From: Scatophagus argus
Taxonomy: Eukaryota; Chordata; Actinopteri; Scatophagidae
Assembly: GCF_020382885.2 (NCBI RefSeq)
Contig: NC_058512.1
Location: forward strand, 5,854,802-5,918,801
Length of the DNA stretch: 64,000 nucleotides
Direction: 5' to 3'
Shown: positions 39,201 through 64,000 of the stretch, one piece after another
Layout: each line of letters opens with the position of its first letter
How positions within the stretch are numbered: the stretch's first letter is position 1
The notes under the pieces: model-generated
What the model was told of the DNA's origin: nothing
What the model saw: only the letters and a program-made list of their open reading frames with translations
Databases searched by the model: none
Translations under genes and position numbers: made by a program

Positions 39201-42200
39201 TGCTTGATGTTGTTTGATTTGTTGGACCGGTGTTTGTTTTATCTGTCGATTCTTCCCAGAAAACCGTGACTCATCTCCTGCAGGTCCACCGCAGCATGTC
39301 CAGCAGAGCTCCTCAGAGTAAGTGACTTTTCTTAACTTAACTGCAACCAACTTAGGACAGTCATTGATTTCATTCAGTTTAATCTTAAACAGACAAATTA
39401 GCTTCATCTGAATGGAGCAGACTGTTGTTCAGAATCAGCTGGTTTCCATTTTTTGCTGTAAATTTACGCTGGACATCAGTTCACATCAGAGAAGCATTTT
39501 ACAAACTTTACGATCAGAAGACATCGCAGATAAAGTATATTATTACAAATATTTATTACATTAATATGTAACATATACACATATTACAGCTGTGGTTAAC
39601 TTTTTGTTCATCATCAGCTGACCTGGAGATTATTTTCTTGATCCTCAGAAAATAGTTTAAAAAAAGCATTACAATTAATAAATTGCAAGTCCAAAAACTG
39701 TAATTGAAAAATGTCTCCCATTGCTTTCTTCCTCACTCATAATGTTTGCCAAGCACACTGTTTACTAGCACAGCCTGGGCAAGTGGGCCGCAGTGTTGGT
39801 TATTTAATTCTAACTGTGATGATAGCACTGTGTCATACCACTGTGGTGTTTTGTGTGTGTGTGCTGTAGTTCGTTTGAAGCAGCACATTCCAGAGGGGTG
39901 GAGTCCTCCAGCTCCAGCGACTCAGAGAGTAGCTCGAGATCGGAGTCGGACAGTGAAAGCACCACAGAGGAGCCACCTCAACGCTCAGTGAGCATCTCAG
40001 TGAAAACAGAGGTAATTTGCTGCTTGTTTGTGTCTATTGAATGAACATGCATTTTTTTTTTTTTTTTCTTTTGGGTGGTGGTGGTGGGGAGGGGTTATCA
40101 GTTTTTACAATACTGATGTATGTGTCTTTTCATAGCCTGAAGCTCCTTCAGTGACCCATGTTGATTGGCAGTTGGGGAACTGGATCAGGTCCAGCCAGCA
40201 GAACTCCAGCACTGAAAGTCAAACCAGTAGACATGCCTCTGAGAGCCCCGCCCTCAAACAGCCGCCGCCCACTCAGAGCTCCAAGCTCTCCAGTGTAGAA
40301 GTGGTTGACCCCACCAGGGAGTGTAAACCTGAGCTTTCTTCCCACCAGAAAGAGTTCACTGATGGCCTTGGAAAGCCCCAGCAGTACAACAAAAGCCCTC
40401 AGGACAGCTTTAACCAGCTAAGTAGCAAAAAATCCCCCTCTGCTGATTTGAGCAGCTGTAGCAGGAACCTTGCATGCACCACGTATTCCTCAAAACCAGC
40501 AAAGACAGGCTGCACTGAAGCAGCCCTCGGCGTGAAGTGTGAGGAGGTTGTAGCCACGCGAGACAAAGACCCGTGTTTCACAGATAGGCCCAAGGTAAAG
40601 ACGAAATCAGGACACAGCAAGAAAAGCAAAGACAGCAGTGAAGCTAAAAAAGACAGTAAGAGGACTTCTAAACGCACGTCACTTGACAAGCGGAAGACGG
40701 GATCAGAGCCTGAAGCCGCGTCGGTCAGGTACGGTCATTGTCCATCATGTGGTGTGCAGTATCCCAACCCCTGCTCCTGCTCCGCCCAAAGTCCTGCTCG
40801 GCCTGACCAGCTGTCTCCTACACCACTCAGAATCAGTGGTAGCAAACCAAAGTCTGAGACCGTCTGCCAGAAGGGCACAACGATTCCTCACAAAACAACC
40901 CACAAGCACCTGCAGAAAACTGGGCATGCAGCCAAGAGTTCCCGACACCCCCACAGGCCTCCGAGATCTCTGGTGGTGAAGATAGATCTAAGTTTGCTCT
41001 CAAAAGTCCCCCAGACCTCCAGCAACCAACAAGACATACCCAGTGATGCAAAGAGATCAGCGCTGGTCATAGGGCCAGCTGGAGGAGGCAGCGATGCTTC
41101 TACCGTACTGAAACTTCCTAAAAACAGCAAAAAGAGTATACCTCAAAATGTGAGCAATATGAAGGGAAATTCCAGTCAGCATACGTGTACATAATGAAAG
41201 TCCTTTTTTACTTTAATGTGTGATTTGCTGTCTTCTAGGTTGAGGTAGATAAAGCTATTCCCAGGAAGAAACCGAGGCTGGAAAACAAGAATACCTCAAC
41301 AAGTCATACTTCTGTTAAACTGGAGTAGGTTCCCTGTACTTGTTTTAGCAGAGATAACATTTCCTAAATGAAAGATTCTTTTCTTTGTGGGTGTGTCTTT
41401 GGTTCGACCACACAAGCTCTTTCATCTTTCAACTGACAGAAATTCCAGCAACTCGGCGGAGGACCTGGGCCGAAAGAAGGCCAAGAAAAATCCCGTTCCT
41501 GTGCAGCAGCCTCTGGCGCCCAAAGACAACGCTAAAGACTCAAAGTTACACAAACACAGTTCTGTGGAGACCCCGGAGACCAGTAAGGAGGCTGGAAAAA
41601 GCAAAGACTCCCACAGGCACAAGAGGAGTAGAGGGAAACACACGGAGAAGCCACACTTTGTAAAGGTGACTGTCAGGACTTAACCACCCACCACACAGTT
41701 TTAGTGATTGTTGACTTATTAGTTCATTTTTAATGAATGTGGAAACCATTCGTATATTAACCAAATGTCTGCCCTGCAATCCTAGAAGCCCCCAAAGAGT
41801 AGCATTGCTGTCCCACCATCTTCACAGCCCACCAGGGGGGCACTGACCAACAGGCCTTTGCTCATATTTGAGGACAGGTAAAAATCCTTTCTGCTGAGCT
41901 ATTAAGCTGTTCTGTAATACACTGTTGTGTTTGTTTTGTTTCCTAAAAGTCAGTCTGTGATTGGCTGGATTTCTCCCCACAATGCAATAATTCCAAAATG
42001 GTTGTTTTGGGAAAAGAAAAGAGCGGAGACAGTTTAGCTGCGAACCAAAACCTCTAAAGTTTGATGCCTTTTGTGTAATGGAAAACTCGCAGATCCTTCT
42101 GCTATAACTCTTAGTAATTAAGGAGGTTTCAGACGTGAAACATGTTGTTGCTAGTCCTAATAAAGCCTCTTTCACCTGTAGGCAGTATCCAGTGAAGCAC

Positions 42201-44106
42201 TACATAAAGGAGGCCAAAAAACTGAAGCACAAAGCAGATGCAGAGGCAAGTTTCAGTTCTGCTTTTTTTTGGTTTACTAAGATGACTGCAGTCTGCTCAG
42301 CACTACAAGGAAACTCTAACCAAGCTGTATTTGTTTTTGCTCTCTCTCACTCTCTGCAGTCAGATAAGCTCAGTAAAGCTTTCAACTACCTGGATGCAGC
42401 CATGTACTTTGTTGAAAGTGGCATTGCCATGGAAAAAGATCCACAGATTTCAATGTCTTCCTACACTATGTTTGCAGAGACCGTGGAACTACTCAAGTAG
42501 GAACCCACTTTCATCATGGATTAGTCGTACTAGTAGTAGCTGTTTTGTAATTATTATTTTGCATGTTTGCAAAACCACACCAGTGTTTTCTTCACCCTGT
42601 CGAGGTCACAGATATTGACATGCTTTTCTATACACAAGGTTTTTTTTTTTGATACATGCATTAGTTTTACAGCTGCATTCTCCACTCTCCCAGGTTTGTA
42701 CTGAAACTTAAAAACTCAGTGGATCCATCTGCTCCACCATCAGAAAAGGACTTTCTAGCTTTATGGTAAGATGTAGATGATACTTAATGTGCTGCTTTGT
42801 TTTAATCTTGCCATCACCTGTACTTTGGTTCTTGGCACCACTAAATCTTCATTTGTTGTTATTCGTTTATGTCAGAGAGCTGTTGATTTAACTTGCAGTT
42901 ATATATGCTGTATAAATGTCAATTATAAAGTTAATATATTGGAAACAATTTACAGTTTAGTAACATTTAATTGTGTCTTGTAGTCTGAAGTGCCAGTCTC
43001 TCCTGCATATGGCTATGTTTCGCCACAAACACAAAACGGCCCTCAAGTATTCAAAGACCCTCACTGATCACTTCAATGTAAGTATTAATGTATTTAAACA
43101 AATGTAATTAAGCAGTTATACTGGGGTAGAAAACCAGCAGGAGATGCATAAACTATATGAAGATATCTTGTTTTGCTAATTAACTTTTGATCTCTTTCAG
43201 AACTCTGCTCAGAAAACACACGATCCTTCTGTCTTAACATCAAAGTAAGTCCTCTAGTGTATTTGTTACATTCACTTGTTGAACACAACAAGCTGTCAAA
43301 GGCTTAGCGCATAAAAATCCTTCTCTACATCATCTCTCCTTTAGGGTCTCAGACACCCCGTCCCCCAGGCCCAGCATGCCATCTCCAGCCAGCACAGGTC
43401 CTGGTTCCAACCACAGTGGCAGCGGACCGACTGTGGACACTGTCGGCAGCACCGTGGGAGTTCCACAGGCCATTGAACGAGTGGCATTCACCTATATCAA
43501 CATCACTACGTTATTCCTGAGCGCTCACGACATGTGGGAACAGGCGGAGGAGCTGGCACACAAAGGCAGTGGTAAGAATGGATGGAACAGGTTCAGCGTT
43601 TCCAAACTTAAACGCTTTTACTGATGCATTAACTGCTGCTTCGTCAAAAGGATAATATAGAGAGCACAAATTACGAAATTTATAGTAATACTATGAATAA
43701 TGAAGTAAATAAAATTCAACAACATTTAACAATTATGACAAATCCCATTAGTTAAATGTGCCTTTAAGAACTTTTGTCTCCCCCTTCTGCCAATGAGAGT
43801 AATTACACAAACACTGTCAATGTGCTTATGGTGCCAAGGGCTCCATCATACTCCTGTTGCTACCCCTTCGCAGTCACCCTCCAAGGTGCATTTAAATTCA
43901 AGCCAGAAATTCATTGCTTTAAAAGCCCAATCCAGGCAAGTGTTTCTTTTGAGATGTTTTTAACATTCCTGTACGTTTCAGGTGTACTGACAGAGCTGGA
44001 CACACTTATGGGCCCACTTAGCCTGACGTCGAGTATGAGCTCTGTGGTCCGGTACACGAGACAGGGTGTCCACTGGCTGAGACTGGACAGCCAAAAGGTA
44101 AAGTGA
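30225..44106 (+). CDS. aff1: AF4/FMR2 family member 1 (19 coding exons)
   Basis: Nuclear scaffold of the super elongation complex that brings P-TEFb and ELL factors to RNA polymerase II. Exons: 30225-30241, 32770-32890, 33722-34555, 37045-37086, 37299-37385, 37932-37965, 39260-39317, 39870-40011, 40136-41149, 41239-41324, 41440-41665, 41786-41877, 42182-42245, 42360-42496, 42694-42765, 42984-43077, 43201-43244, 43345-43571, 43982-44106; 3516 nt, 1171 aa (human 1210 as recalled). The N-terminal domain has [15 protein letters not shown] and [33 protein letters not shown] near residue 270 and [14 protein letters not shown] are AFF1-like. Ser/Asp-rich transactivation region 398-445, then WQLGNWI. 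The C-terminal homology domain (about 919-1171) has [18 protein letters not shown] and [11 protein letters not shown] last donor-like GTAAAG before the stop leaves an alternative end possible. Confidence 0.95.
34622..34795. repeat. Dispersed repeat fragment in aff1 intron ('gttagcttagcac...')
   Basis: 'gttagcttagcacaaagaac' and later 'cgtatttcccaaaatgtcaa' match the two ends of a common teleost repeat. The middle appears deleted. Confidence 0.55.
36145..36168. repeat. (AC)n microsatellite in aff1 intron
   Basis: Uninterrupted AC units, flanked by ordinary intron sequence. Confidence 0.95.
42246..42359 (+). other. aff1: GC-AG intron of aff1
   Basis: The exon ends GCAGAG and the intron starts GCAAGT, the usual context of a GC-type donor. 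The acceptor is CTCTGCAG at 42352-42359. The reading frame across it (HKADAE then [11 protein letters not shown]) matches the AFF family, and no GT donor nearby keeps the frame. Confidence 0.75.
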
Positions 44107-46718: not shown

Positions 46719-49700
46719 TTATGTGTCTGATTCTCCTATGAAGTTGGGGTTGGTGAAAGCAGGCTGCAACAGAAGAATGACACCACTTAGTATTTACACT
46801 CCCATAAAAACCTTCACCATGTGTTCATAACAGGCTCATCAATAACTTACCACATCAACGCGACTGGTTGTTCTTGTTGGCAGGCTCAAGCTGCTCATTT
46901 TATACCCCCGGACCCTGAAGATGTAGTACAGCAGTCCAACGATCAGGACGAAGATCACTAAGGCCGCAATGACAGCGCCAGCTACCAACCCACCATTCCC
47001 TCCTACAAACAGATACACAAGCACAGATGTGTCAGTGTTGCTGTTGAACATATTTTTGATATGAACTGATGATATACAGGTATGCCTGTTTCTCTAAAGC
47101 TACCCTATATTAAAACATGTCACAGGTTGCACATGTACATTTGTTTGACATACGCTGGAAAAGAAAAGTAGAAACTAAAAAAGTCGTAATATAAAGTTAA
47201 CGGGATTCTGGTAAATAGATAAAACTGACTTTACGGTTGGTGCTTGGACTTAATTGCTAATTATCAGTAAACTATGGGAATGTCATCAGTTTCGCAGGTA
47301 TTTAATCATCACCAAAGTCAATGGGATTCATCTTCACGAATGTCTGAACAAAATTCCATGGCAATACACTGACCGACATGGACCCTGCAAGGCGCATTCA
47401 GCCAAGCTATGTAGTTCCTCAGTCCCGGATGTAATGCTCAAACTTTAAATAATGTACAATATGTGTCACTCTGTCACACTTACCACTGACATTTGGACCA
47501 TCAGTGGGTGAATCAGTGGGAAAAACTGGATTACCACCATCATCTGTTGTATGGTCTGAGAGAGATTCACACATACAATCTGTTAATCTGCTGCTGAAGA
47601 TCAAAATGAAAAAAATGGCAGAAATATCAAAAATCCTTACACTGGCGATGGCGGCATGCGAAGCCTCTCTTCTGCAGGCAGTCGTTGTCGTTCCAGCGTC
47701 CGTCGTGGTACATCTCGACGCAGTTCTCTTCAGCCACGTCCCCGGGATGGAAGGCTGCATTGGGTTCTCCTTGAGCCCAATTGAGAAAGCCCACAGAGGT
47801 TTTATCTGTCCAGGCCCAGCCAACTAAAAAATGAAATATACAAGGATCCAGCATCAAACAGAAGGAAGATTTATATATCCATCTATTTAATGTTTCGGAT
47901 CAAACAGATCTGTGAATAAACATTGGTATCATTTCTACAGTCCATTTCCACACTCACAGTTGTTGTCCCTGGTGAGGCCGATCCAGATGTTGTGATTTTT
48001 GGTGTAGTTCATGCTCCTGATGAACTCCACCTCCGCTCGGCTGTGGAGGGACACCAGATCTGCTTTGATCGACTGGCAGTAGTGACGGGAGTCGGGCCAG
48101 GAGAAACCTTGCTGACCGTTGTACACGTAGTAACAGTGGCGGCCGTAGGGTTCCCAGAACGGCAGACACTTCCCATCACCGGGGGCAGGAGTCGGTGGTG
48201 GTTTCTCTGTGAGTTACATAATCAACAACACCTGAAGTTTAAGACAAGATTAAATTTTTTTGTGTGTGTAACATAATGCCTCATCACATAATTCTGAATT
48301 CAGATCAGTTTTAGCCATTGTTACCTACCTGAGGAGATCTTGCAGATGTAGGGTTTGGCCAGGTCACACCTGGTGTCGTTCCAGGTCCCGTGGAACATTG
48401 GTGAACCGTGCATACTCACGCAGCCCTCATCTTTGATATTGCTGGGCTCTCCCGGTCCCCACTGAGTAAAGAAGACGGGCCATCCGTCTGTCCACATGTA
48501 GGAGCCGTCCTCCTACGTTACAAGAAAACATCAGCTTGGGTTCAACTGGTTAAAGGGTATATAAAGTAGTTAAAATAGCTCAGACCTCAGTCAGCTATAC
48601 TATTAGAATCATACTTAGACATTGATGAATCAGTTTCAATCTAATAATACATGGCTCCTGTGACTGATGTATTATATCTAATAATACATCAGTCACAGGA
48701 GCCATTTTTATTGCATAACGAGTACATTTTGTTGACAGCACCTTGCGTCTGAGTCCAATCCAGGCGTCAAATTTGCCGTGCAGGACCACTCCAGCGATGA
48801 AGGCCTGGTCGTAGCTCATGTCGATGCTGGCCAGGTTGCCGCCCTGCTGCAGGCAGGCCGTCTGAGCTGCGTCCCAGGTCGCCGGCTCCTCCACCAGCTT
48901 GTAGCAGTTCAGGTACCAGGAGATGTAGCCATCTGGGCAGGGGCTCTGGGTTGGTTGTGGAGGATCGATGCTGCTTGCTGATGTGGAAGCAGAAAATGTT
49001 GTTTTAAGTGAGGCCTGAACAACGATTTAGGTGCTTTGTTTGAAACGTTTCTGTTTATAAAATTCATGTTATTTGAACAGAAAGAGTAAAGTGAGTTTTT
49101 ACTGACATTTCTTCCTGTAGCACACGAAGCTGTGTTCCTTATGACAGGCGTCATCGTTCCATTTGCCGCTCACCAGGTGGTGGTGAGCGATCGCGACACA
49201 GTGTTCCTGATGAGAACGACAAGACACCTTAAAGCAATTGAACTATAAATGCTTCTCAAGCACAGTGTCCAGGTTTCGGTGCTGCCTGCTTAGCTCCAAT
49301 TATCTATAACTCTGTAGTGTGCTCCTCACCACTCCTCCTGCATTGTTGGGCTCCTTGTTGTTCCAGTTGGTGTACAGCACGGGGCTGACCCCATCACTCC
49401 AACCGTACTGATTCTCCACCAAGAGATCCGACAGACCTATCCACGTGGGGAGCTCCATGTCCCGCAGGTAGCTAGACACAAAGTCTGGAAGAGACGAGAC
49501 GAGAGAGAACAAAATAGAGACAGATATCTCACTGACCCAGAGACACTGACCTCTTACTCACAGATTCAGCTCACCGTTCTCATACTGGTTATCAATAACA
49601 GCCAGCTCTCCTCCTTGGTCTTTGCACCAACTCCGAGCGTAAGACCAGTTGGCTTTGATGTCGTTTTTCTTCCCTTTGAACATGAAGCACTTATCCTTGA

Positions 49701-52700
49701 AACGCAGCCAACCTGGAGGGAAGGAAAGTAAACAGGTTATAGTCTGTAACTCTCAGCTCTTCCTAAAAACCGGTCATAAATGTACAGCTTGATTTCTAAA
49801 CAACGCTGAGCAGTTTTCTCAAGTTTTCTTAGCACACACAACTCAAACTGTGGTTTTATACACATTTGGTGATCTAATGAGCAATTCCAGCAGCAGGATA
49901 GTGTGTATGGGACTGACTCAAAGTCCTGGATGTCTTCATCCTAATGAAGGAACAGTCAGCATAACGTTTGAGAGCAAGTCTGTGTGCACAGTTTTGGTCT
50001 TTTCATGGTATTTGTTCACAATAATGAAATGACATATATGGCCAGACCTTTTGTCTAAAATATGTTAAAATCATGAATATGACTTGCATGTTTTAATAAA
50101 TAAAGAACATAAAACTGAAGATGTTTTATGTTCATGTTTAAAAAGTTTGTTACCTGCAGGGCAGTATCCCTCCCAGGGCTGTGTGGGTGGAGGAGGGGTG
50201 TGGACATCTCCGGGTAACTTCTTACAGACGTAACCTGCTCCAGCCCAGCCACAGTTGGCATCGTTCCATACACCTCAACAAGCCAGTTCATTGTGAGTAT
50301 CACCACCATGGAGTCAGTTCAGTTAATACAAACAGATCTGAATGGCCTTAATTGTCATACGAATGGAATTCCAATACCTTGATGTCTGTTCATCTGAACG
50401 CACTGTTCCTCCCCGTTGGCATTGTTGGGTTCACCTGTAGCCCAGTGAGTGTAGGCCACAGGTGAGTTGTCCACCCACCTGTGCAGGTGAAACAGAGATA
50501 CCTTCGTATTGACCTTTTGAGTGCGTATCATAAAGACAAAATCCTCTCATATCAAATCCAGAAGCGCCTTATTTAAACAAAGTTCCTATAGCTTTGAATC
50601 ACAAAATGACTCCATGCTCCACTACATTCACTGTGAGTGCTGTCATAATGTCCTAGAATTTGTTGCACTATTCACTGTATGTTGATCAGCTCCAGTGTTT
50701 GTCTCAAACAGGATCTGTTTGTTAGTTTGCTGCTCAGATTAAGGGGAACACACGTCAAATTAGAAAAAACAATACTATAGAAATAAGGTGACATCTAACT
50801 TTGGGGCCAATTCACCTTAACTCCAATGACTTGGAAATATACGTACTTGTATTGCTCATTTGCAATGCCAAACACCCTCATTCCAATCCAAGCTGCGGCG
50901 ACCTGGCCTGTCCCCACCTGGCAGAGGAGGACAACACAACAACATATTTCACTGTGACACATCACAACATATTCTACTTTAAAAAGGTGAAGAAAACAAG
51001 GGGACATACCATGCTGTTAACGTACGCCTGTTCGTTTTTGCTGAGGATGGAGACGAGCCTGGCTTTCTCGTGGTAGCAGCGCATCATGGCCGTGTGGAAG
51101 TCCACGATGTCGGTGTCGTTGTAGTAGTAGCAGATGTCGTTGTTCTTCCTCCAGCCAGGGTTGGTACCGCACTCTGGAGCTGAGGGGTTGAGACAGGAGA
51201 AAAGAACCGTGGAGATGCTTTGACTGTCTCATCACACAGTGATTCCAGGTAGGATGATTTGCAAGAAGCCATAGCATCTGTTAACTTTGCAAATGAATAT
51301 GTGAGGATGTCTAATTTACTCTACAGGTAGCAGTAAATTTAGATTCATCTTACTTACGAATCATTGTCATTTTTTACATTTGTAAAATAGGAAGCATTGC
51401 ATTGTGCGATTGTTACCGTAAAGTAGTATATATATGCTATGGATTTTGTGTATAAATTTGACATCACTCAACATATATTGACACTCACAGGTGTAACAGT
51501 AGTGGGGAAATGGGGAGAATTTAAACATATTTGTCCATATGCTTCAATCCTATTTCAATCTAGAGAACTTTGAACTTTTTTTTTTATTCAATAATGTTCA
51601 TCTCAAGTAAGAAAAATCTTACTTGAAGGTAAGAACTCCATCATTTCAGTAGGAAATTCTACCTTTTCCACCTCTGCTTAGTTACTTTTTTTTAACTTTA
51701 TTTTACTTTATTCCATATTTATTTCATACAATATTTACTGTACAGACCTGGCAGACCCACTGAAATCAAATATGTTTTTCAAAAGAAAATAATGCCAAAC
51801 ATGCTGTATCAAAATTCAAGTTTCAGACTTTTCAGCAGAAACCTCTGCTACCTCACCATTAAAATAACATGGAAAATTCCTCTGGCAAAACAGAAACATG
51901 ACTTGTTCACACAGGTAGCACAGGTGCATTGTGGGTACCTGGGGCAGGAGATGGGGGCTCAGGGGGCAGGATAGGGTCCTTTCCTTTAGAAATCATGCAT
52001 ATCCAGTCCTGGTGAGCATCACAGTTGAGATCGTTCCACCAGGAGTGGGTCCCGTTGGCGCCGCTCACCATCTCTACACACTCCTCGCGGCCCTCGTGGT
52101 TGTTGGGCTCCCCCTTACCCCAGTTGGTGTGGGAGAGAGGTGTGCCATCGCTCCATGAATAACCTATGCAATGGGCATAATGAGATAATGAAAATAAACA
52201 GAGGTTTTCTTTACTTGCATCCCAAGTAGCTACCACCAGAGTCCACGCTTTGAAGCACACATTCTACTCACCTCCTTCTGTAGGGTTGTGCTTGAGGCCG
52301 ATCCACTTGCTGCTGCCTTTGCTGTACAGAGACAAGAACTCCTCCTCCTCCTGATTGTGGATGCTGACCAGGTTAGCTCCTCTGCCGACACAGTCCTCAT
52401 ATGCTCTTTCCCAGCTCTTCTTCTGGGACCAGTCCACATTATGGAAGAGCTGCAATGATTGAACCCACAAATCAGCACTGGAAAATCAAGGACTGACCCA
52501 ACGGCCCTTACAGAGAGTTTAATTCAACGCCTTATATACCTTGTAACAGTTTCTGAAGTGAGGCAGAGCTGTCCAGCCCTCTGCACAGCCCTGTGAAGGA
52601 GGAGGAGTCGGGGGTTTGGTGGGTGGGGTGATGTCAGGCCTGGATTTCTCACAGAAGAAGTTATATTTCTCTGAGCACTGTTTGTCATCCCAGAAACCGC

Positions 52701-55700
52701 CAATCTGACCCGCCGTCATCGCCACACAAGTGCCATCCCCGCTATCTAGAGACAAAAACAACATTGGTGTTTCCCGTGTGTTTCCCGTAATATCCCATCC
52801 AGCTGATACTCGGGTTAACACAAAGTCTGTACCTGGCTGGTCTTTATCCCAGTGAGTGAAGGTGAGAGGTGAGCCGTTGTCCCAGATGTAGTCCACCCCT
52901 CCGCCTGCCTCTCCTCGAGCACGCAGGCCAATCCACCAAAAACCAGTCTTCCCCGACAGCTCAACGGTAAAATGTGACTGCTCATAACTGCAGGGAAACA
53001 AAGATGGACAAGAGAATCAAAAACTCTAGCCGAGCAGACTGTTGCATCTGAACAATCAGGGTCCAGAATCTGCCGTGCAAAGGTTTCTTTACTTTTGTAT
53101 TACTCACATGTCTCCAATGTGCACCAAGAAGCTGTCCTGCTCCTTACAGAATTCCTTAGCTTCCGACCAGCTCCTGGCGGTCTCCTCCATCCAGTAGCAG
53201 GAGTAGCCGTATGCATCCCAGCCCTGAAACCCACATACACAGACAGGTGAGGCTAAGGCAGCGATTATATCGGTGGTACACAACATGCAATGTAGGCGTC
53301 ATGACTAAAGCACAAAATGAAACAATGGTTAGAGTTTGTCCTACCTGAGGGCATCCGTACACAGTGGGTTTCACAGAAGGCACTGGGTAATGTGCTTTGG
53401 GCATTTTGCATATGTACGTGTTGAGTTCTGTACAGGACACGTCGTTCCATCGGCCAGTCTGGAGAAGAGATGACAACACAAAAATGACCACAAGTCATAA
53501 AAAAGCAAGAAAAGGATGCACATTGGTTGATTTTTGCCTCCGCCTCTATAGTACAAAATGTATTTTAATGGTGTGTAAGACAGTTTTTCCATCCATCTCA
53601 CCTGGTGTAACATCGCAACACAGTCTTCACTGAACCCTTCGTGGTTGTTAGGTTCCCCTGGAGCCCAGTAAGTGAAGGTCACAATGTGTTCATCAGACCA
53701 GGTGAACATACCAGGCACAAACAGGTCATTCAGACCAGTCCATACATCCCTGGTGGCTGTAAAGGACAACAAAAAAACATATTCATCATGAATTCTTTCA
53801 GTTTTCAGTTACAACATTAAACCACCTTCCACATCCCTTTTTTCAACATCCATACCCATGTACAGGTAGCTTTCGATCCAGCTCTGCTCTGTCATCGAGA
53901 GGATGGAAACAAGTTCTGCATTTAGATTCCTGCAGGTGTTTTGGGCATCACGCCATGTCTTTTTGTCTCCAAATGGTTTGTAGCAGAAGTCTCCAAACTC
54001 ATACCAGTCAAGTCCCGGACACCTCAGCTCTGCGGGAGACAGGATCATGAATGAAAAATACACTTGCACCAGGACAAAAGCAAAGGTATCCTACGCAGAG
54101 GAAAGAGGATCATTTAAGGGGTTATAAATGCATCTCAACTCACCCCCATCTGCAAAAGTGTAAGACACAGGATAGCTTCCATCATATCTGTAGAAAAATA
54201 GGTTTGATGTTGAATTAGCCTTCTGGGACTGTTGTGCCATGCAAAGAAAAATTATTTAGTCTAAAACATCTAAAACGGGGCTACTTACTGTCGTGAGGTG
54301 ATGCCATTCCTGGTGGAGCCGGCATAGAAGTCCTGTCCTTCGGCTTTCAACAAAGTACATTCTCCTCCGATTTCAGTCAGTACCACTCCAGCATGGATAG
54401 CTGCAGCACAGATGTTTGAGTCCTGTTAGAGGAGGCAGAGCAGAGATATTACTTATATATAAAAAAAATCTTTCCTTCAACACTGTACAGAATTTGTGAT
54501 ACAGACAAGACAACACATTCACGCACCCCGCGGTATTCCGTGGTGCCGTACACTATGTAATCTTCCTTGGCACAGCCTGCTGGACAATGGACACTGAAAG
54601 ACAATAGCATTATTACTGTACAGAAACAGAATACAATGGTACATCCAAAATGTGGTGCGAGTGTGTGAAAACATTTCAGTTTACACTCACGTCATTTTAT
54701 CACTGCCAAAGTTGAGGCCAGGCTTAGTGGCGCACGCGATTGCATCTGTCAAACAACATTTTGTTGTTATTCACCATCATTTGTGAAAGGGTGAAGGTCA
54801 AGGTAGAATTTGGGGAAATTGGAAGTAGATCTGTAACACTGGTAAACAGGTTGTCTCACAGTCTGGTGTGCATCCTAAGATGTCGAAACGAAGGCCCGCC
54901 TGACCGTTGAACTCGACTGGGATGATGCGCACATACTGAGTCGTCACAGGTGTACCCAGAAGCTGAGTATCTGGAGTGTTTCTGTCTGTTGAGCCTGGAA
55001 AAAACTAGAAATCGAGGAAATCCCCAATGACAATCTGTTCTTCATCTTCACAGTTTGTTTCTGAACCAGGAAGGACTTTGGCAGGTGTTTGTCTCTGTTT
55101 ACTCACCTGTCCATCAGAAGTGTAGTCAGTAAAGGTTACTCCATCCATACTGTGCTGGATCTTGACTTTGGTGAGCCAGTTGTCATTTTGAGGACAACCC
55201 TGGATTACTATTCCTGTTACTTTTCTGATCTGGCCCAGGTCCACCTGGATCCAGTTTGAGGTTGCTGGAGAAGGGGACATTGGATATTGTGACATTAATG
55301 TGAGGATACGAATTCACCTTTAACAACAGATTAACATACTGTTTTGACTGCCCTGGTTGGTACGTACGGCTTCCCGAAGGCATCCAGCAGGAATCTCCAT
55401 TCAAACGGGCTTTGTCGGGTGTGAAGAGGCCAGTGGAGGAGTAAGCGGAGAGCTGGGTGTCTGTGATGTTCCCGTCCTCGACACCCAGGCCGTGCAGACA
55501 CACTGTGAGACGCCAAACCACAAAACAAAAAGCCTTCAGCTGTGACCGCACCAATTCAGAGCTTTTCCATGATACTCCAAGAGAAAGGGAGAATGGTAAG
55601 GGTGCAATAAAATGTACCAAAGAACAAGAGAAAGAGCCCACCTTTTTGTTCACAACTGTAGACAATCTCGAGATATTTGGAAACAGTGGGACAGGGGTCT

Positions 55701-58700
55701 TCCTCCATATGGGCGTATAAAAAGCAGAAGGGGCGGTTGTCACATTTCTTTCTGTAGAAAGGAAGGACACCTTCCACTGTGCAGCTCCCTACAGAACAGA
55801 GATTATCTTTTGGTTAACCACAGATCAATATTTAATTATTAACTTGAAAAATCCTGAAATATAATTTCACATGAAGATCATGAGGAAGAAACATTTTAAT
55901 TCCCAAATGTGGGCAAAAACCGCAATTTCTCCGTCTTAATCATCACCTCCTCCTGATCCATCCAGGTGGGGACAGATGTCATCACTCTTTCGTCCGTAGA
56001 AAGCTGACTGGATGTTAATTACACTTTCCTCTGGGCAGTGAAGGACAGAAGAGGAGTCCTGGCACACCAGTGCTGTCATGAAACCTGCAGCAGGAAAGGT
56101 TTGCAAATCAAATATTTACGTGACAAGTCAATCGTCGTGCCCAGTCAGTTGTAGATGTACAGTATAGCTACAGTGCTGATATAACCGATCATAAGTCACT
56201 ATGCAGGAAGCCATGTCAAGTAGTGAGGTATTGTTACCGTCATGAGGCGGAGGAGGCTCGGGTGTTTTTCCTGAAAGAGGAAACATTAGCACAGTGTTAC
56301 CATCATGTATAAACACTCCAAGTATTGTCTTGTGTTTGCAAATGTAAACTACAACAATTAAAGCAACAAATCTCACCTCTTCGCTTGCAGATGTATCCTC
56401 TTTTGTGCTCACACTTGTCGTCGTTCCAGTAGCCATTGTTAATATATATAGACAGGCAGTCTTCACCGTCGTAGTTGTCTGGGTTGCCTGTGAGGAGAGA
56501 TGAGGCTGACTTCTATTGTCTCTATACAACAATACTCGTATGTTTTGTTTCTGAATCATTCTCACAGAATTCATGCCAAATATATTTGGCTTTAAACTAA
56601 CCTGTGTACCAGCGGATGTATCTGAAAGGAGAACCATCTGTCCACTCCCAGCCGCCTTCAGTGATGGAGTCATGGCCGCCCATCCAGAGAGAGATCCCTG
56701 TCGGACTCTGATGGATTATACCTGTGAGCAAACAATAAAGTACACAACTTTTTTAGAGGTAGTAATAAACCAAAGCAGACAGCATGTGGGAGCAAACACA
56801 CAAATGAGAGACTCCATCTTAATCTTAACCTTAGAGTAACTTAGTCTCAGAGTGTCACCTGTACATCACTGCAGCAAAGAGTTAAGATGCTACAGTCAAC
56901 CACAAAACGAAAAGTATTTAAAGTTTATTAAATATGATGATCCTTATTAATATTAACAGGTTTATTGCTGTTTAAACAAGAACATATTAAATATTGCACT
57001 GATTTATGACAAATTATCAGGGACACACCTTGTATGAAGGCCTGTTCAAAGGGTTCGGTGATGCTGACGAGGTCTCCCCCCTGGTTAACACAGTCAGCTC
57101 GAGCCTCCGCCCACGTCCTCATCGACAGGTAGTTAAACAGGTAGCAGTAGTCGTTGAAAGGGTCAGGCGTCCAAGAGCCACATTTCTCGTTCCATCCTGC
57201 AACAAACACGACCCAAAGCAGTTCATGTACGAAGAAACACACACACGCACGTGTTATCAGATCATGCTTGAAGCGTGATGATCAAGTTAACCTGGTCCAG
57301 ATGTTGGAGGCTGGGGAGGAGGTCCTTGTCCCTTGGCTGTGGAAAGACAAGACAAAAAATAATTACAAAATACAGTATGAATACAACATGAAAATACAAA
57401 CAAAAAGAAAATGCATCAAACCTTTTTTGCATATAAAGTCCCTTGTGGAGGTGCATAAATCATCATTGAATTTCCCAGGGTCATGGTGGTCGGGGCCTCT
57501 GAGGTGCACACAGTCCTCGTTGTCCTGCCAGTTGTCTGGCTGGTTGAGCCCCCATGGGAGGAAGTCCTGAGATCCAAAAACAAAAACAACCCAGACTGAA
57601 ATGTTTGCTTCCAGCTGAGCAGCTTCACAGTCAAACTGCAGCACTTCCACATGATGAAACACTGAGGGAAGAACAAGATCTCCCCAAGAATCCCATGAAT
57701 GGCCATTTTACAGTCCTTTGCATCGCACAGTATGTTCATAGCTTTATCACTTACTGCAGGAGTTCCATCAGTGTAAACGAACTGGTTTTCAACGCCGATA
57801 TCATTCAGTCCCAGCCAGGCTGAAATCGGCATGTGACCTGCAGATAAAAGACAACAACAAATTTAAATTTCAAGCAATATATTTACAATAGCAACATTAA
57901 TATAATTTTGTGAATTTTTTCATGGTAAGTGAATGAGCTAAAGCTGTTCACCCATGATGAAACTCAGTTCTTCCTGTGAGTGTACGCTGGCCAGGTGAGC
58001 CTGCGCTTTGTTACAATGAGCCTCAGCGTCGTGCCAGTTCTTCATCTCCTCAGTCTCAAACTGATAGCAGAAGTCTCCATAAAGCAAATATCCAGCATCA
58101 CAGTGGGAATCTGAAGCAAAGCAATGACACAGTTAGGACACAGCTATTAATAAAAGCTAGCGGGTATGTGAAGACGGACCACCAAGTCTGACTGACCAGG
58201 AGCTGAAGTTGGCTTGGGGCTCTGTCCACCTGTCATCTCACAGATGTAACCCAGGTTCTTGAAGCAGTTCGTGGTCTCCCATTTGCCGTCATAATTTCCT
58301 GGAAGAGAGCAAAAACTCAGCTGATGTTGGTTTTGGAATGCCAGCCTCAACTGAAAAGTGTGGCTGTCATTTTAGAGCGGAGATTGTACCTGTGAAGATT
58401 TGTCCACAGTCCCACAAGTCTGCAGTGTTTATGGGCCAACCAGGACCATAGTTGGAAAATCCAATCTCGGTTTTATCCACCCATTTGAACTCCCCGTCTT
58501 TATCCCTATCTGGTCGCCAAAAAATGACGTGTATTTTCACAAATCACTTTTATTGTAGAGACAATTATGTCATTGTGTCACAGCGATAGTCAAAGTGTAT
58601 ACTTCGCAGAGTACCTGATAAACCAATCCAGATGTCAGGAATGCCCACTTGGTGAAAGTTGGGAAGGTTCGCATTTATGAAGTACTGTTCTTCCTGACTG

Positions 58701-61700
58701 AACAGAACAGACAGACGGGATAAGATTTCTACTGTCCTCACAAACACTGTGTAATTCTGTGTAATTATTCAGCAAAATCACCTGATTGTGTGGAATTGAA
58801 CAAAGACGCTTTCGCTACTTGTGAAATTCAGCTTTTCATTTGGGAGACTTGTGTGCTATTTCTTTTTCCAGAACTGCAGCCATTTTGTTCTTACCTGTTT
58901 ATAATCAGCAGGTGGGCCCCCATATCGGAGCACTTGGTGAGAGCCTCATGCCAAGTGGTCAGGAGATCGATATTACTGACCAACCAGTAACAACTGCCAT
59001 TGAAGCTCATCCAGCCAGGAGAGCAGATGGCTGGAGGTGAGCGTTGGAGAAGAGATTGAAATAGAAGGAAAAACGTAAAGAATCTCAACAACAAGTTTCT
59101 ACTTTTATGATGAAAATAAAGATGTCACGATCGGGACAAGACATGTCATGTTTGTGTATTTCAAAAATCAGTCCAGCTTACTGTTCAGAGGTCGTTTACA
59201 CATGTAAGGACGCTCATATCTGCACACATGGGTTTTCCACTTCCCAAATTCATTTGTTTCATCTTTGATTAATGCAGCACATGAGCCAGCCTGTGCATCA
59301 CTGTTGGAATAAATATGTTAATCATTAATTACACAGATAAATAATTCAGCTTAAATGGCAGGTACACAATATGATATCTTACACTGTAGGTTCATTGGCA
59401 GCCCAGTTTGTGTAGTTCACATTGAGAGCATCAGACCAGGTAAACTGACTGTTTCCTGCTTCGACTTCACATGAGATCTTGTTGCATTTCTACAAGAACA
59501 AACTCATCTTCACATTGATGTACAAAGTATTCATATCTATTTTTAAAAAACCAAGTGAGCTTCTTAATGCCCCACAATGTTCCTCTCACCAGTGTGGAAA
59601 GCCCAATCCAGATGTCCAAATGTGAGGAGTCCAGTGTTGATATGATATACTGCTCTTCTGCTGCTGCAGTGATGGACACCAAATCTCCTCCATCCTGCAC
59701 ACAGTCATGTCTGGCCTCCGACCAACTCTTCCTGGTCTCTGCCTTCAGCTTGTAGCAGTTGGAGCCGTGCTGCCTCCAGCCGTTAGCTAAGTCACACGTC
59801 GGGCCAGGATTCGCTGAACAGCAGAAAAGAAAATAATGCCTGTTAGTGGATCTGAGGAAGAGGTTCTTAACACATGGCTGTTTGAAAAACAACCAATTTG
59901 TCTATTGATTTGTTTGAAGGTGACCAAACATGATGGCAACCATGTGAACTTTGACTGGTCTCACTCATGTCGTCACTCGTTTTTATGACTCGATATAAAG
60001 ATAACACAGAAACTGAGATGAAATTTTGGGAAAGATTGAAGCTGCTGAGTTTCTGACCACAGTATGTGAACTACAAGTGAAATGGGAAATGAGAAATATG
60101 CTGTTGCAAGGTTGTCAGACTGCGGAGACAGTGGTCACTTTTAAATGAATGATGTTTAAATATCTCCGCTGTCGTCACATTTTGCACTGTATGGTGTGGT
60201 GGACCATCCAGTATCTCATCTGAGCAAATTGTTGTTGGTATCAGGTCAAATGTCCTTAAAAAAACAACTATAAGTACTTTTTTGACTTAAGAGAAATTGA
60301 TGGTGCATAAATGAAAACCAGTTTTATTCTGCTTAGAGTTAAATGCAACCTTTGTCATCTGACTAAGCTGCACTACGGAAGCCTGAGAGGTATGTGCAAA
60401 AAACACAAAAACCAAAAAAACCCAAAACCATTCTGCTGATCCATTTTCTTTTTTTTTTTTTTTTAGTTTGCCAGGATATTTTTTACATTTGTGAAAGATT
60501 TTGCCATTGGCATTTTTTGTCAGGATCAATCCTGGCACGTTGAGTGAAAGAGGTCAAAATGGACACCAGTTAGTCAACTTACAGTTGATGTGCTTGCAGA
60601 TATATTTCCTCTCAACATTGCAGTTCTCATCATTCCAATGTCCAAAGTCACTTCCTACCACCTGACCACAGTCCTCCCCAGGCTCATCACCCCAGTTATC
60701 AGGCTGGCCTGGCATCCAGTATCTGCAACAAAACAGATTATTTTGTATAAGCTCCAGTAAAAACACTTTACACACCCTGGAGTGTGCAGTTAAACTTTTC
60801 AGCATATACAACTTTGATGACTTTTTCCTGATACTCAAGTAATAACAACACTACATACGATAAGTATTCTATAAAAGGACTCCCATCAGTCCACTCCCAG
60901 ACTCCTTCTGAGACTTGGTCATTCAGGCCGATCCAGTAGATATCTGTGCTGATTTGTGTTCTCACCCACAACTTGGAGAAAAAGACATAAGAGTTAAATG
61001 AGCCCAGCGTGTGAAATGATAAACAAGCTTTCATCATATCCGACTCCTGGAGGCGGGTGCATGTCGTCTCACCCTCTCGTAAAGGTCCTGAATGCTCATC
61101 AGGTTGCTGTTCTGCTTCAAACAAAATGCGTTAGCCTCCATCCAGGACTTTTTATCAGTTGAAAAGAAGTAACATCTACCCTCATTCTCCCTCCAGCCTT
61201 GCTGACACTGGCTGTGAGCTGACAACACAACAATACAACAGACCGTCAGTGTGCATGAATTTGATCAAACTGTGACACACACAAGAGCAGAGGAAATACA
61301 CCAAAAATACTACCCGCCTCTCAGGCAGGCTGGCTGTCACACTATTTATCCCTCAAAATGTAACTTTCTTTTCGCTTGCCCTCCTCCACAATCTGAATAT
61401 GAAGGGTGTCAGTGATGGAAGTACTCAAATCATTTTGGTTGTCTCGTGTGAGTAAGGCAGAAAGGTACACAATGAGGTAGTGTTTTTAAGTTTTCTTCAT
61501 GTTACGTTAAATTAGGTTGACTGGCCTCCTTCCTCGCTCCCTGACTTTCTCTTAGATGTTTTACAGACAAAAATCATCAAAAGTCAACTTTCCATATAAA
61601 AGTTATAAATGGCCATTTTTCTACACTGAGTAAAAACTACTAGTTTTTATTACTGTTACTCAAATAAGCTTAGAAGATATTTACTATTGGAGTACTTTCA

Positions 61701-62579
61701 CAGTATGGTCTTAGTACTTAAGGTTCTGGATCAACTTCTGTCTGGTAATCACAGTTTTGGCTTTAGGGATTGTTTTTAAATACTGATATGGAAAATCAAT
61801 GTAGCATCACACAGGCCGCAAAACACGACGTAACAACATTTTCCTGTTGGGAAAAACAGGAGAACAAAAGTGCTGATGACTTTTCAGGGTTGATGTGGAC
61901 CTTCACAAAATGGTGAATCATTTGAATGCTTATCAATCATAAAAGTCCCATGACAGTCGACTCTGAGCACCTCATTCAAATCAATGTTTGACTTTAACAA
62001 CGTTTACAGACAATACAGAATCACATGTTTTTCACACATCTGTAATGGGTTTTACCTAAAACAGCACGCTACAACAACCTGTGAGGCCCCCGAATCAAAA
62101 ACTAAACCATTAGCCACTGATAACAAATATTTCAGAATACAAAATACACTTAAATCCTCTGTTAGTTAGAATTTACTAATAAAACATAAACCATCATTAA
62201 GTCTCTTGTGAGTTTTTATTTCTTCTGAGAGACTCTTAACATAAAAAGCAAAAAAAGAAAAACAAATAAAAACAGTAAAGCTTCTTCTGCAACATCCATG
62301 AGTTTAAATACTTCTCAGATTACTACAGAATAACATTAATAATATGATTTCCACTGTTGGAATTGAATAACATGAATCTGTTTTCTACCATCGTTTTATT
62401 ACTTTTATACCAGAACACCTCATACATTTCAACATTAAGACAGGGTCAGTTGCCATAATAATTCACTTCAAAATTCAAAACGGTTAACTACGAAACATTA
62501 GACCAAAAAGTGACTTACCGCAAGCAAGAAGAGCAGCAAAGCTCAGCAGCTGCAGAAGCTTTCTTTGTCTTCTGTCCAT
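46719..62579 (-). CDS. Giant 12-CTLD receptor with SUEL, F5/8C and LCCL domains (50 exons)
   Basis: Fifty exons join in frame (6537 nt, 2178 aa), from ATG at 62577-62579 to TAA at 46719-46721. A signal peptide ([13 protein letters not shown]) is followed by CTLD1-5 (about residues 21-727), SUEL lectin (739-833), F5/8 type C (834-979), LCCL (980-1079), CTLD6-12 (1080-2088), a stalk, one transmembrane helix (about 2119-2143) and a 35-residue tail with FTNPNF. Exon low ends in transcript order include 62519, 61073, 60859, 60583, 59590, 59383, 59182, 58895, 58615, 58390, 58197, 57952, 57755, 57422, 57292, 57029, 56602, 56377, 56238, 55947, 55642. Sugar-site motifs: QPD in CTLD1, 4 and 7; EPN plus WND in CTLD6, 8, 9, 10 and 12; EPS in 11; NPD in 5; CTLD2 and 3 look degenerate. 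It resembles mannose-receptor relatives but lacks ricin and FnII domains. Likely a cell-surface endocytic or pathogen-binding lectin. Confidence 0.92.
47270..47395. repeat. Dispersed teleost repeat, copy C (receptor intron)
   Basis: 'gggaatgtcatcagtttcgc', 'aatcatcaccaaagtcaatg', 'gaatgtctgaacaaaattcc' match the same family as copies A and B in ppef2. It lies between exons 46851-47002 and 47484-47555. Confidence 0.55.
48651..48705. repeat. Perfect 25-bp inverted repeat with 5-bp loop
   Basis: Left arm 48651-48675 (ATGGCTCCTGTGACTGATGT...) is the exact reverse complement of right arm 48681-48705, with loop ATCTA. It sits in the 229-bp intron between receptor exons 48329-48512 and 48742-48977. 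A TAATAATAC stretch at 48642-48650 recurs at 48679-48687. Confidence 0.95.
54144..54745 (-). other. LCCL domain within the receptor
   Basis: Exons 54691-54745, 54527-54593, 54289-54422 and 54144-54187. They spell [37 protein letters not shown] and [19 protein letters not shown], a textbook LCCL fold (Limulus factor C, cochlin, Lgl1) with conserved cysteines and the AAIHAGV motif. Confidence 0.92.
54860..55502 (-). other. F5/8 type C (discoidin) domain within the receptor
   Basis: Exons 55368-55502, 55107-55264 and 54860-55004. Features: [20 protein letters not shown] at the start, then [35 protein letters not shown], and the usual end [20 protein letters not shown] with ILGC. The opening and closing cysteines that normally pair are both present. 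I placed the last acceptor at 55005-55006 because the nearer AG does not keep the frame. Confidence 0.9.
55642..56084 (-). other. SUEL/rhamnose-binding lectin domain within the receptor
   Basis: Exons 55947-56084 and 55642-55788 encode about 95 residues with the hallmarks of galactose/rhamnose-binding (SUEL) lectins: [13 protein letters not shown] (YGR motif), [14 protein letters not shown], and [18 protein letters not shown] (DPC motif). The domain is entered and left by phase-1 introns. In fish such domains usually occur in secreted egg or skin lectins. Here it lies inside a membrane receptor. Confidence 0.88.
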
Positions 62580-62662: not shown

Positions 62663-62704
<42 letters not shown>

Positions 62705-64000
62705 TGTGCTCTAACTCCAAGCTACCAGACCTCTGAGCATCTTCTCTGTGATTCACGTCTTTTCAGCATCCCTCCAGGGTTCAAAGACTGAAAGCAGTAA
62801 AACACAGATGACAAACACTTGACCTCCACACTTATTTTCTACATTACAACCTGCAATAGTTTGCTGCAGGATGAGCATATTTTGATTTCTCAATCTTCAT
62901 GTTAGGGATAAAACATTATCATTTTTAAAGTGTGTAAGCAGAATACAACATTTGCATGTTTTCTAAGGACAAAAAGCATTTTGCAGTGCTTGTATTTAAA
63001 CAGAATTTTTCAACAATTTACTTCTCGAGTACTTTGAGTGTACTCATGGATGAATGCGTCTGTTAAATAAAACCTACTTTACTATTCAGAAGATTAGAAG
63101 ACACATTTCATTGAATGCAATGTCTCCTTACTATTTCATATTCTGAAGCAAGTAATAACCGCTAAAAATGGTATAAATTGTGTGTGTGAGTGTGTGTGTG
63201 TTTTACCAGTGTGTGGTACAGGCCCCTGGAGCTCATAGCACACAGGACATAATGATGATATAAACACACACGGGAGGTCACACAAACTCAGAGTATATCA
63301 GTTTGTAAACAGGACATCTGGGGACCTTTAATATCCTTAAATGACAGTGATGGTAGGAACACACACATCACATTTGACACAGCAAAACCACAAAGTCCAG
63401 AAGACGGTTTATAGCATCCACATGTCAAGTGTCAATAAACTGCCAAATATCTGCCTCAAACTGTTACTTTTTAACTTGGTTTAATGGGATGTTACAAAAC
63501 AATACACACAAAAAATTGACATCAAATTCTCATTTGTGCAGATTGCTCAGCAGGAAGACAACTTAGTAAAGTGCCCTTACCATAAACTTGAGCTCGGATG
63601 TTTTTTAGGGCCAGTCCCAAAAGTAAGGCAAAGAATTATAGAAGAAAAGAGAAATCCCACCGGTGAACTTTACATATATAACTTTATTGTACCAAGTTAT
63701 ACCAACGTCATGTCAATAAAAAGCAAAAGATGGAAGCAGTCAAGAGGAGGAAGAACACAAAGTACAGTAAAGTTTACAAAAGACTCGTTTGCTAACAAAG
63801 TTGGCAACAATATTGATAATATATTGCTGATAATATGCACTAGAATGAATATCGGCAGGACACGAACTGTAATAATATGTGTATTTCTAGCATAAACTGT
63901 ATATAGTATTTCCATTTTAAACTCAGCCTATTCTGAAAAACAAAACTGTTATTACATTTTTCTTAGGGCAGAAACAGGCATGAGTGTTAAATAAACATCT
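62580..64000. other. Upstream region of the lectin receptor gene
   Basis: No supported coding exon. It holds a GT microsatellite at 62667-62702 and a shorter GT-rich run near 63181-63200. AATAAA motifs on the plus strand occur at about 63435, 63716 and 63987 without an associated coding region. An open frame at 63536-63895 has no splice context or recognisable domain. Confidence 0.4.
62667..62702. repeat. (GT)n microsatellite just upstream of the receptor start codon
   Basis: About 18 uninterrupted GT units, starting 88 bases upstream of the ATG, so in the 5'UTR or core promoter. Alternating purine-pyrimidine tracts can adopt Z-DNA. Confidence 0.95.

What the first reader, a model, noticed from the sequence alone, without database searches (positions are those of the whole stretch)
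46719..62579. A 2178-aa receptor with 12 C-type lectin domains plus SUEL, discoidin and LCCL modules
Fifty exons read in one frame from signal peptide to cytoplasmic tail, with a non-CTLD block (SUEL, F5/8C, LCCL) between CTLD5 and CTLD6. Known vertebrate mannose-receptor family members (MRC1, MRC2, PLA2R1, LY75) have ricin-type and FnII domains plus 8 or 10 CTLDs, and DCBLD proteins have CUB-LCCL-F5/8C. I know no described protein with this order. It puts three sugar- or lipid-binding folds on one receptor and may be a fish-specific endocytic or pathogen sensor.
Basis: partly seen in the sequence, partly recalled or inferred. Interest (0 to 1): 0.9.

Follow-up and report, generated by a model that had tools for sequence, protein, structure and literature searches.

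The report
Fish twelve-lectin-domain mosaic receptor gene
A single large gene, probably from a bony fish, encodes a membrane receptor with twelve sugar-binding-type domains split five and seven around three other binding modules; a 2004 study predicted nearly the same protein in pufferfish, but no work on what it does was found.

Summary
Pfam finds five C-type lectin domains (CTLDs), then SUEL (1.7e-15), F5/8C (1.2e-26) and LCCL (1.4e-21), then seven CTLDs.

The claim that this order is undescribed fails. Zelensky and Gready (2004, PMC514892) predicted pufferfish DEC205-FUSE: about 2000 residues, 5 CTLDs, FA58C and LCCL, then 7 CTLDs in assembly v.3, without cDNA support or a human orthologue. 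The word SUEL is not in its main text.

New here: a complete open model; SUEL; phase-1 introns bounding each inserted module; a C-terminal block closest to the mannose-receptor family (CTLD5, 6 and 10 best match family CTLD1, 2 and 6; other tested CTLDs are ambiguous); complete Ca2+/sugar-site residues in 7 of 12 CTLDs (QPD in 1 and 4; EPN in 6, 8, 9, 10, 12); an FxNPxF tail motif.

Most likely an endocytic glycan receptor. Function and expression are inferred, not shown.

The parts
46719..62579 (-). whole coding span, 50 exons, 2178 aa
62519..62579 (-). exon 1: start codon and signal peptide ([20 protein letters not shown])
   Evidence: A at -3, G at +4 of the start codon; signal peptide judged by eye
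60583..61218 (-). CTLD1 (exons 2-4); QPD, E-x-C, WND
59182..59813 (-). CTLD2 (exons 5-7); Ca2+/sugar site incomplete
58197..59030 (-). CTLD3 (exons 8-11); Ca2+/sugar site incomplete
57422..58110 (-). CTLD4 (exons 12-14); QPD, E-x-C, FND
57292..57336 (-). exon 15: proline-rich linker
56377..57196 (-). CTLD5 (exons 16-18); NPD, E-x-C, WND; best match to mannose-receptor family CTLD1
56238..56270 (-). exon 19: 11-aa proline-rich linker
55642..56084 (-). SUEL (rhamnose/galactose lectin) domain, exons 20-21; 8 Cys, YGR, DPC and KYL present; phase 1 at both ends
54860..55502 (-). F5/8C (discoidin) domain, exons 22-24; phase 1 at both ends; weak donor at 55368
54144..54745 (-). LCCL domain, exons 25-28; phase 1 at both ends
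53345..54029 (-). CTLD6 (exons 29-31); EPN, E-x-C, WND; best match to mannose-receptor family CTLD2
52540..53223 (-). CTLD7 (exons 32 to part of 34); QPD but no Glu and WDD
51939..52745 (-). CTLD8 (end of exon 34 to 36); EPN, E-x-C, WND
50154..51179 (-). CTLD9 (exons 37-40); EPN, E-x-C, WND
49107..49712 (-). CTLD10 (exons 41-43, starting at the end of exon 40); EPN, E-x-C, WND; best match to mannose-receptor family CTLD6
48329..48977 (-). CTLD11 (exons 44-45); EPS, E-x-C, WND
47641..48206 (-). CTLD12 (exons 46-47); EPN, E-x-C, WND
46851..47002 (-). exon 49: single transmembrane helix and start of the tail
   Evidence: 19-aa hydropathy maximum 3.1 at residue 2120
46719..46763 (-). exon 50: last 14 residues with FTNPNF (FxNPxF) and stop
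   Evidence: motif meaning

Best explanation
One intact teleost gene encodes a type I membrane receptor that is a mosaic derivative of the mannose-receptor family and is probably the orthologue of the predicted Fugu DEC205-FUSE gene. The family's ricin-FnII head is absent and extra CTLDs of uncertain origin stand in its place. A SUEL-F5/8C-LCCL cassette, in modules bounded by phase-1 introns, sits between the equivalents of family CTLD1 and CTLD2. Proposed mechanism: the long ectodomain binds glycans at several Ca2+ sites, galactose-type (QPD) in the N-terminal half (CTLD1, CTLD4), mannose-type (EPN) in the C-terminal half (CTLD6, 8, 9, 10, 12), and rhamnose/galactose at the Ca2+-independent SUEL domain; discoidin and LCCL add lipid or microbial-surface contacts; the FTNPNF tail engages PTB-type adaptors (Dab2, ARH) for clathrin uptake. 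Shown here: the gene model, domains, intron phases, motif residues and nearest families. Inferred: sugar specificity, adaptor binding, endocytosis, cell type and ligand.
For: Open 50-exon model. Domain hits. Mannose-receptor family chains lead the CTLD6-12 block search. CTLD5 best matches the first CTLD and CTLD6 the second in FcRY, PLA2R, LY75, MRC1 and MRC2 (the MRC1 and MRC2 chains are partial), and CTLD10 best matches the sixth in the three proteins whose chains hold it. For CTLD8 the only single-CTLD chains below 1e-22 are from MRC1 (7jub, 1egg). Complete Ca2+-site residues in 7 of 12 CTLDs (read by eye). SUEL has 8 Cys plus YGR, DPC and KYL (definition). FTNPNF fits FxNPxF, the adaptor-binding and internalisation motif of amnionless. 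Same layout as Fugu DEC205-FUSE, with a 114-bp LCCL-CTLD intron here against 135 bp there.
Against: No RNA, protein or binding data. The equivalence to the family is incomplete: CTLD12 matches family CTLD1/2, not CTLD8; within full-length chains CTLD8 and CTLD9 score highest against CTLD1, 2 or 8, not 4 and 5. Family chains rank first for all 8 single CTLDs searched, but those scores add up over many CTLDs; as single domains, CTLD1 scores higher against langerin (92 bits; best PLA2R domain shown 41.7) and CTLD4 against aggrecan (75 bits; best domain shown in the full-length family chains 52.4). Orthology to DEC205-FUSE was not tested by sequence. A six-residue tail motif can occur by chance. 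The donor at 55368 is weak.
Confidence: 0.6

Rival explanations
1. Two neighbouring genes run together by prediction: a five-CTLD protein and a separate seven-CTLD receptor, with the SUEL-F5/8C-LCCL block on one of them.
For: The name DEC205-FUSE ('looks like a DEC205 fused to another CTLD-containing gene') reflects that suspicion; the 2004 paper says GenScan often merges neighbouring genes and that EnsEMBL placed a 4-kb intron over this centre. No transcript evidence here.
Against: The joints are introns of 106, 153 and 114 bp with continuous phase 1 and no stop codon. The only 19-aa windows above hydropathy 1.2 are the transmembrane helix at 2110-2140 and a weak one (1.36) inside LCCL; the signal peptide itself peaks at only 1.18, as does a window at 1577, so an internal signal peptide is not excluded by this measure. 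A second species shows the same order.
Confidence: 0.1
2. The protein is a glycan-binding adhesion or matrix receptor rather than an uptake receptor; the tail motif is incidental.
For: LCCL modules are described as often found in extracellular proteins beside adhesion domains such as C-type lectin and discoidin domains (passages of PMC10892792), and a rhamnose-binding lectin of the SUEL type was purified from hemolymph as a soluble protein (PMC10817417, abstract).
Against: The closest relatives of the C-terminal block are uptake receptors (recalled for MRC1, MRC2 and LY75), and an FxNPxF motif lies in a short tail.
Confidence: 0.25
3. The gene is decaying, or the discoidin domain is usually mis-spliced, so the full product is seldom made.
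For: The donor at 55368 scores -1.6, while two higher-scoring nearby donors (55340, 55318) break the frame.
Against: No stop or frameshift in 2178 codons, all 49 introns GT-AG, coding-like composition.
Confidence: 0.05

Closest known systems
Fugu rubripes DEC205-FUSE (Zelensky and Gready 2004, PMC514892; abstract, Group VI section and passages read)
   Same: About 2000 aa; 5 N-terminal CTLDs; FA58C and LCCL in the middle; 7 C-terminal CTLDs in assembly v.3; short intron after LCCL
   Different: The word SUEL does not occur in the main text (figures not held); 10 C-terminal CTLDs in assembly v.2; sequence not compared; GenScan prediction only
Mannose receptor family (MRC1, MRC2, PLA2R1 and its bird relative FcRY, LY75)
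   Same: Tandem CTLDs, type I membrane protein with a short tail, nearest solved relatives of the C-terminal block, partly matching CTLD order
   Different: No ricin-type or FnII domain found; 12 CTLDs instead of 8 or 10; SUEL-F5/8C-LCCL cassette; 7 of 12 CTLDs with complete Ca2+-site residues; CTLD1 and CTLD4 not closest to this family as single domains
DCBLD1/2
   Same: LCCL and F5/8C side by side in a membrane protein
   Different: No CUB, F5/8C precedes LCCL, many CTLDs
Plasmodium LCCL proteins PfCCp1/2 (PMC10892792, passages read)
   Same: Discoidin, ricin-type lectin and LCCL modules combined
   Different: Parasite proteins without transmembrane domains; no CTLD or SUEL named for them in the passages; resemblance in modules only
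Manila clam RpMR proteins (PMC12321717, passages read)
   Same: 1-14 CTLDs per protein; FA58C among the domains found in the set
   Different: LCCL does not occur in that main text; genes were picked by CTLD content

Membership tests
DEC205-FUSE architecture | 5 N-terminal CTLDs, FA58C and LCCL in the middle, 7 C-terminal CTLDs (assembly v.3), about 2000 aa | tested here: met
DEC205-FUSE architecture | Short intron between LCCL and the next CTLD (135 bp in Fugu) | tested here: met
   114 bp
DEC205-FUSE architecture | Sequence orthology with the Fugu protein | not testable with these tools
   The session allows no supplement look-ups, so the paper's sequence file was not requested; no fish genome is searchable
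Mannose receptor family (group VI) | N-terminal ricin-type (cysteine-rich) domain | tested here: not met
   None in the 739-aa N-terminal part nor in 20 of 34 listed minus-strand ORFs of 25 aa or more between 61117 and 64000 (two irrelevant hits below cut-off); sequence beyond 64000 not seen
Mannose receptor family (group VI) | Fibronectin type II domain before the CTLDs | tested here: not met
   with the same limits
Mannose receptor family (group VI) | 8 or 10 CTLDs | tested here: not met
   12
Mannose receptor family (group VI) | C-terminal CTLD block (CTLD6-12) closest in sequence to the family | tested here: met
   Top hits FcRY, PLA2R and LY75; scores add up over many CTLDs
Mannose receptor family (group VI) | N-terminal CTLD1-4 closest in sequence to the family | tested here: inconclusive
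   Family chains rank first by summed score, but single domains of langerin (CTLD1) and aggrecan (CTLD4) score higher; CTLD2 and CTLD3 not searched singly
Mannose receptor family (group VI) | CTLD n+4 here equals family CTLD n | tested here: inconclusive
   Clear for CTLD5, 6 and 10; ambiguous for CTLD8 and 9; against for CTLD12; CTLD7 and 11 not searched singly; the long alignment uses this register
Mannose receptor family (group VI) | One transmembrane helix and a short tail | tested here: met
SUEL / rhamnose-binding lectin domain | 8 Cys with YGR, DPC and KYL motifs | tested here: met
   definition in PMC10817417
DCBLD family | CUB-LCCL-F5/8C order (recalled) | tested here: not met
   No CUB, and F5/8C precedes LCCL

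The most novel reading that the evidence does not exclude
A conserved fish receptor with two opposed C-type lectin batteries on one chain, galactose-type toward the membrane-distal end and mannose-type toward the membrane, hinged by a Ca2+-independent rhamnose/galactose lectin plus lipid- and microbe-binding modules, and internalised by an amnionless-type FxNPxF signal. It would be a single-molecule glycan decoder made from a mannose-receptor family gene by head replacement and exon shuffling, and lost in humans.
Probability: 0.3. Interest if true: 0.65.

Novelty: new member of a known kind. Interest (0 to 1): 0.42.

Why it matters
It gives a complete, open gene model for an architecture that was predicted in 2004 without transcript support and could have been an assembly or prediction artefact. 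It adds the SUEL domain, the intron-phase evidence for module insertion and a concrete, testable functional hypothesis. If right, fish carry an endocytic receptor with more intact Ca2+ sugar sites than any human mannose-receptor family member (the human counts are recalled).

Tried and rejected
Considered a frameshift in the F5/8C domain. The first splice pass skipped its middle exon because phases did not match. Listing candidate sites resolved it with the donor at 55368 and the acceptor at 55004.

Looked for missing N-terminal ricin or FnII exons in 20 of 34 listed ORFs upstream of CTLD1; only two irrelevant hits below cut-off.

Tested a strict one-to-one register with family CTLDs on eight of twelve CTLDs; only partly supported. 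The tree of the 12 CTLDs had mostly weak support and is not used. Pfam also listed poxvirus A33R, herpesvirus UL45, Xlink, a second F5/8C model and Rxt3 on parts of the chain; the viral, Xlink and Rxt3 matches have no stretch that passes on its own and are not used.

Structure prediction was not tried: its stated rule admits proteins that the DNA gives letter for letter, and this protein is spliced. Bacterial, viral and plasmid collections were not searched because they are not expected to hold fish genomes.

Ten paper searches were made; seven aimed at this protein, the others at motifs and module combinations. No functional study of it appeared in the listings, one of which was capped (10 of 38 papers shown). 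Listed but not opened, among others: PMC3269628, PMC3039611, PMC5712786, PMC12549020. Subscription journals are mostly outside that library.
Full report
WHAT IS THERE. The feature is a protein-coding gene on the minus strand. A splice-site dynamic programme, anchored on coding peptides picked by eye from the translations, gave 48 exons and 2048 aa, with some exons missed or misplaced. Listing candidate sites around the F5/8C exons showed a consistent path (donor 55368, acceptor 55264, donor 55107, acceptor 55004). Adding that exon, the first LCCL exon, the last CTLD9 exon and the transmembrane exon gave 49 exons and 2167 aa, after a first joining with two misplaced boundaries was mended. All 49 introns are GT-AG, from 82 to 1300 bp, median 114 bp. 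Third-position GC is 0.607 against 0.369 in introns; one frame staying open this long in intron-like sequence has a probability near 10^-65, an overstatement since sites were chosen to keep the frame open. The start codon has A at -3 and G at +4, and one strong transmembrane helix stands near the end. Two junctions are weak: the donor at 55368 (score -1.6) and the unscored CTLD9 acceptor at 50273.

DOMAINS. I gave the protein to Pfam in three pieces that together cover the chain. Pfam gives five Lectin_C stretches in the N-terminal 739 residues, then SUEL_Lectin (1.7e-15), F5_F8_type_C (1.2e-26) and LCCL (1.4e-21), then seven Lectin_C stretches. Solved relatives of the centre are neuropilins and coagulation factors V and VIII for F5/8C, an L-rhamnose-binding lectin for SUEL and cochlin for LCCL. 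The SUEL domain has eight cysteines and the YGR, DPC and KYL motifs (counted by eye) that PMC10817417 names as characteristic (passages read).

WHAT IT IS RELATED TO. For the CTLD6-12 block the best solved relatives are mannose-receptor family proteins: the yolk sac IgY receptor (FcRY; its identity as the bird PLA2R relative is recalled), PLA2R, LY75, then MRC1 and MRC2. I then searched eight of the twelve CTLDs one by one. CTLD5 best matches the first and CTLD6 the second CTLD of all five proteins, though the MRC1 and MRC2 chains are partial. CTLD10 best matches the sixth CTLD in the three proteins whose chains hold it. The rest do not settle the register: CTLD4 matches CTLD2 or CTLD1, CTLD1 matches CTLD1 or CTLD2, CTLD12 matches CTLD2 or CTLD1 and not CTLD8, and within the full-length chains CTLD8 and CTLD9 score best against CTLD1, 2 or 8 rather than 4 and 5. 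Family chains rank first in all eight searches, but those scores add up over many CTLDs. Taken as single domains, CTLD1 scores higher against langerin (92 bits; best PLA2R domain 41.7) and CTLD4 against aggrecan (75 bits; best FcRY domain 52.4), so the origin of the N-terminal CTLDs is open. In favour of the register, the only single-CTLD chains below 1e-22 for CTLD8 come from MRC1 (7jub, 1egg; recalled to be its CTLD4), and CTLD8 aligns without a gap to PLA2R CTLD4 over a longer segment after an early cysteine ([12 protein letters not shown] against FHSEKVLMKRTW), where domains 1-3 have gaps but domain 6 does not. The long alignment also runs in the register CTLD6 = family CTLD2. My reading is that CTLD5-12 derive from family CTLD1-8 and that the cassette was inserted after CTLD5. 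This is inference with partial support.

EXON SHUFFLING. SUEL (exons 20-21), F5/8C (22-24) and LCCL (25-28) each begin and end in phase 1, as do CTLD1, CTLD4 and CTLD5. Phase 1 is also the commonest phase in this gene (30 of 49 introns), so the signal is suggestive rather than unique. Symmetric phase 1-1 modules are what exon shuffling predicts (established knowledge). The introns at the two joints are 106 and 153 bp (CTLD5-linker-SUEL) and 114 bp (LCCL-CTLD6). They leave little room for the end of one gene and the start of another.

PRIOR ART. [quoted passage not shown]). The word SUEL does not occur in its main text; its figures were not available. The layout here equals the v.3 prediction in CTLD number and order. 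Orthology by sequence could not be tested. Seven paper searches aimed at the protein listed no functional study.

HOW IT MAY WORK. The residues that coordinate Ca2+ and sugar in C-type lectins (EPN or QPD, then E-x-C, then the ND of WND; recalled from the mannose-binding protein) are complete in 7 of 12 CTLDs: CTLD1 and CTLD4 with QPD, CTLD6, 8, 9, 10 and 12 with EPN (sequences, read by eye). CTLD5 has NPD and CTLD11 EPS with the other residues present; CTLD2, 3 and 7 are incomplete. PMC514892 links EPN with mannose and QPD with galactose specificity (passages). The N-terminal half would thus favour galactose-type and the C-terminal half mannose-type sugars. SUEL would add Ca2+-independent rhamnose/galactose binding. 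LCCL proteins are described as contacting bacterial wall components, in one case lipid A (passages of PMC10892792). The tail ends in FTNPNF followed by eight residues. FxNPxF is the adaptor-binding and internalisation motif of amnionless, conserved among the human and three fish sequences compared (passages of PMC8278012 and PMC8710305). An endocytic glycan receptor is therefore the best-supported function. None of this was tested experimentally.

SURROUNDINGS. Of ten ORFs from elsewhere in the window given to Pfam, five had a hit. At lower coordinates on the plus strand lies an AF4/FMR2-family gene (AF-4 1.3e-51; AFF4_CHD 3.5e-27), tail to tail with this one, and further away a Nup54-domain exon on the plus strand and a metallophosphatase-like exon on the minus strand (the latter just below Pfam's cut-off). 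That the source is a teleost is inferred from the compact gene and the match to Fugu; no call states it.

VERDICT. Real and correctly described, but a new member of a kind already predicted. Its interest lies in the confirmation, the SUEL domain, the intron phases and the testable functional model.

Noticed in passing
window 33722-42497, + strand: AF4/FMR2-family (AFF) gene exons, convergent with the receptor gene (Pfam AF-4, AF4_int, AFF4_CHD).
   Followed up: partly
window 9057-9302, + strand: Nup54-domain exon (Pfam 4.9e-09), with FG-rich ORFs at about 5-7.4 kb that fit the same gene by eye; the ORF at 7102-7422 gave no Pfam hit.
   Followed up: partly
window 13767-14189, - strand: Metallophosphatase-like exon (7.6e-4, just below Pfam's cut-off); nearby ORFs with EF-hand-like and IQ-like stretches by eye suggest a PPEF-type phosphatase (recalled name); two neighbouring ORFs tested gave no Pfam hit.
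   Followed up: partly
window about 48650-48705: An inverted repeat (TGGCTCCTGTGACTGATGTATTA and its reverse complement) in the intron between exons 44 and 45, perhaps a small mobile-element remnant (seen).
   Followed up: no
window about 62665-62705: Long (CA)n repeat about 90 bp upstream of the start codon.
   Followed up: no
PMC12321717 (Manila clam): A clam survey reports 'mannose receptor' proteins with 1-14 CTLDs and, within the set, an FA58C domain (passages); a possible parallel combination in molluscs.
   Followed up: no
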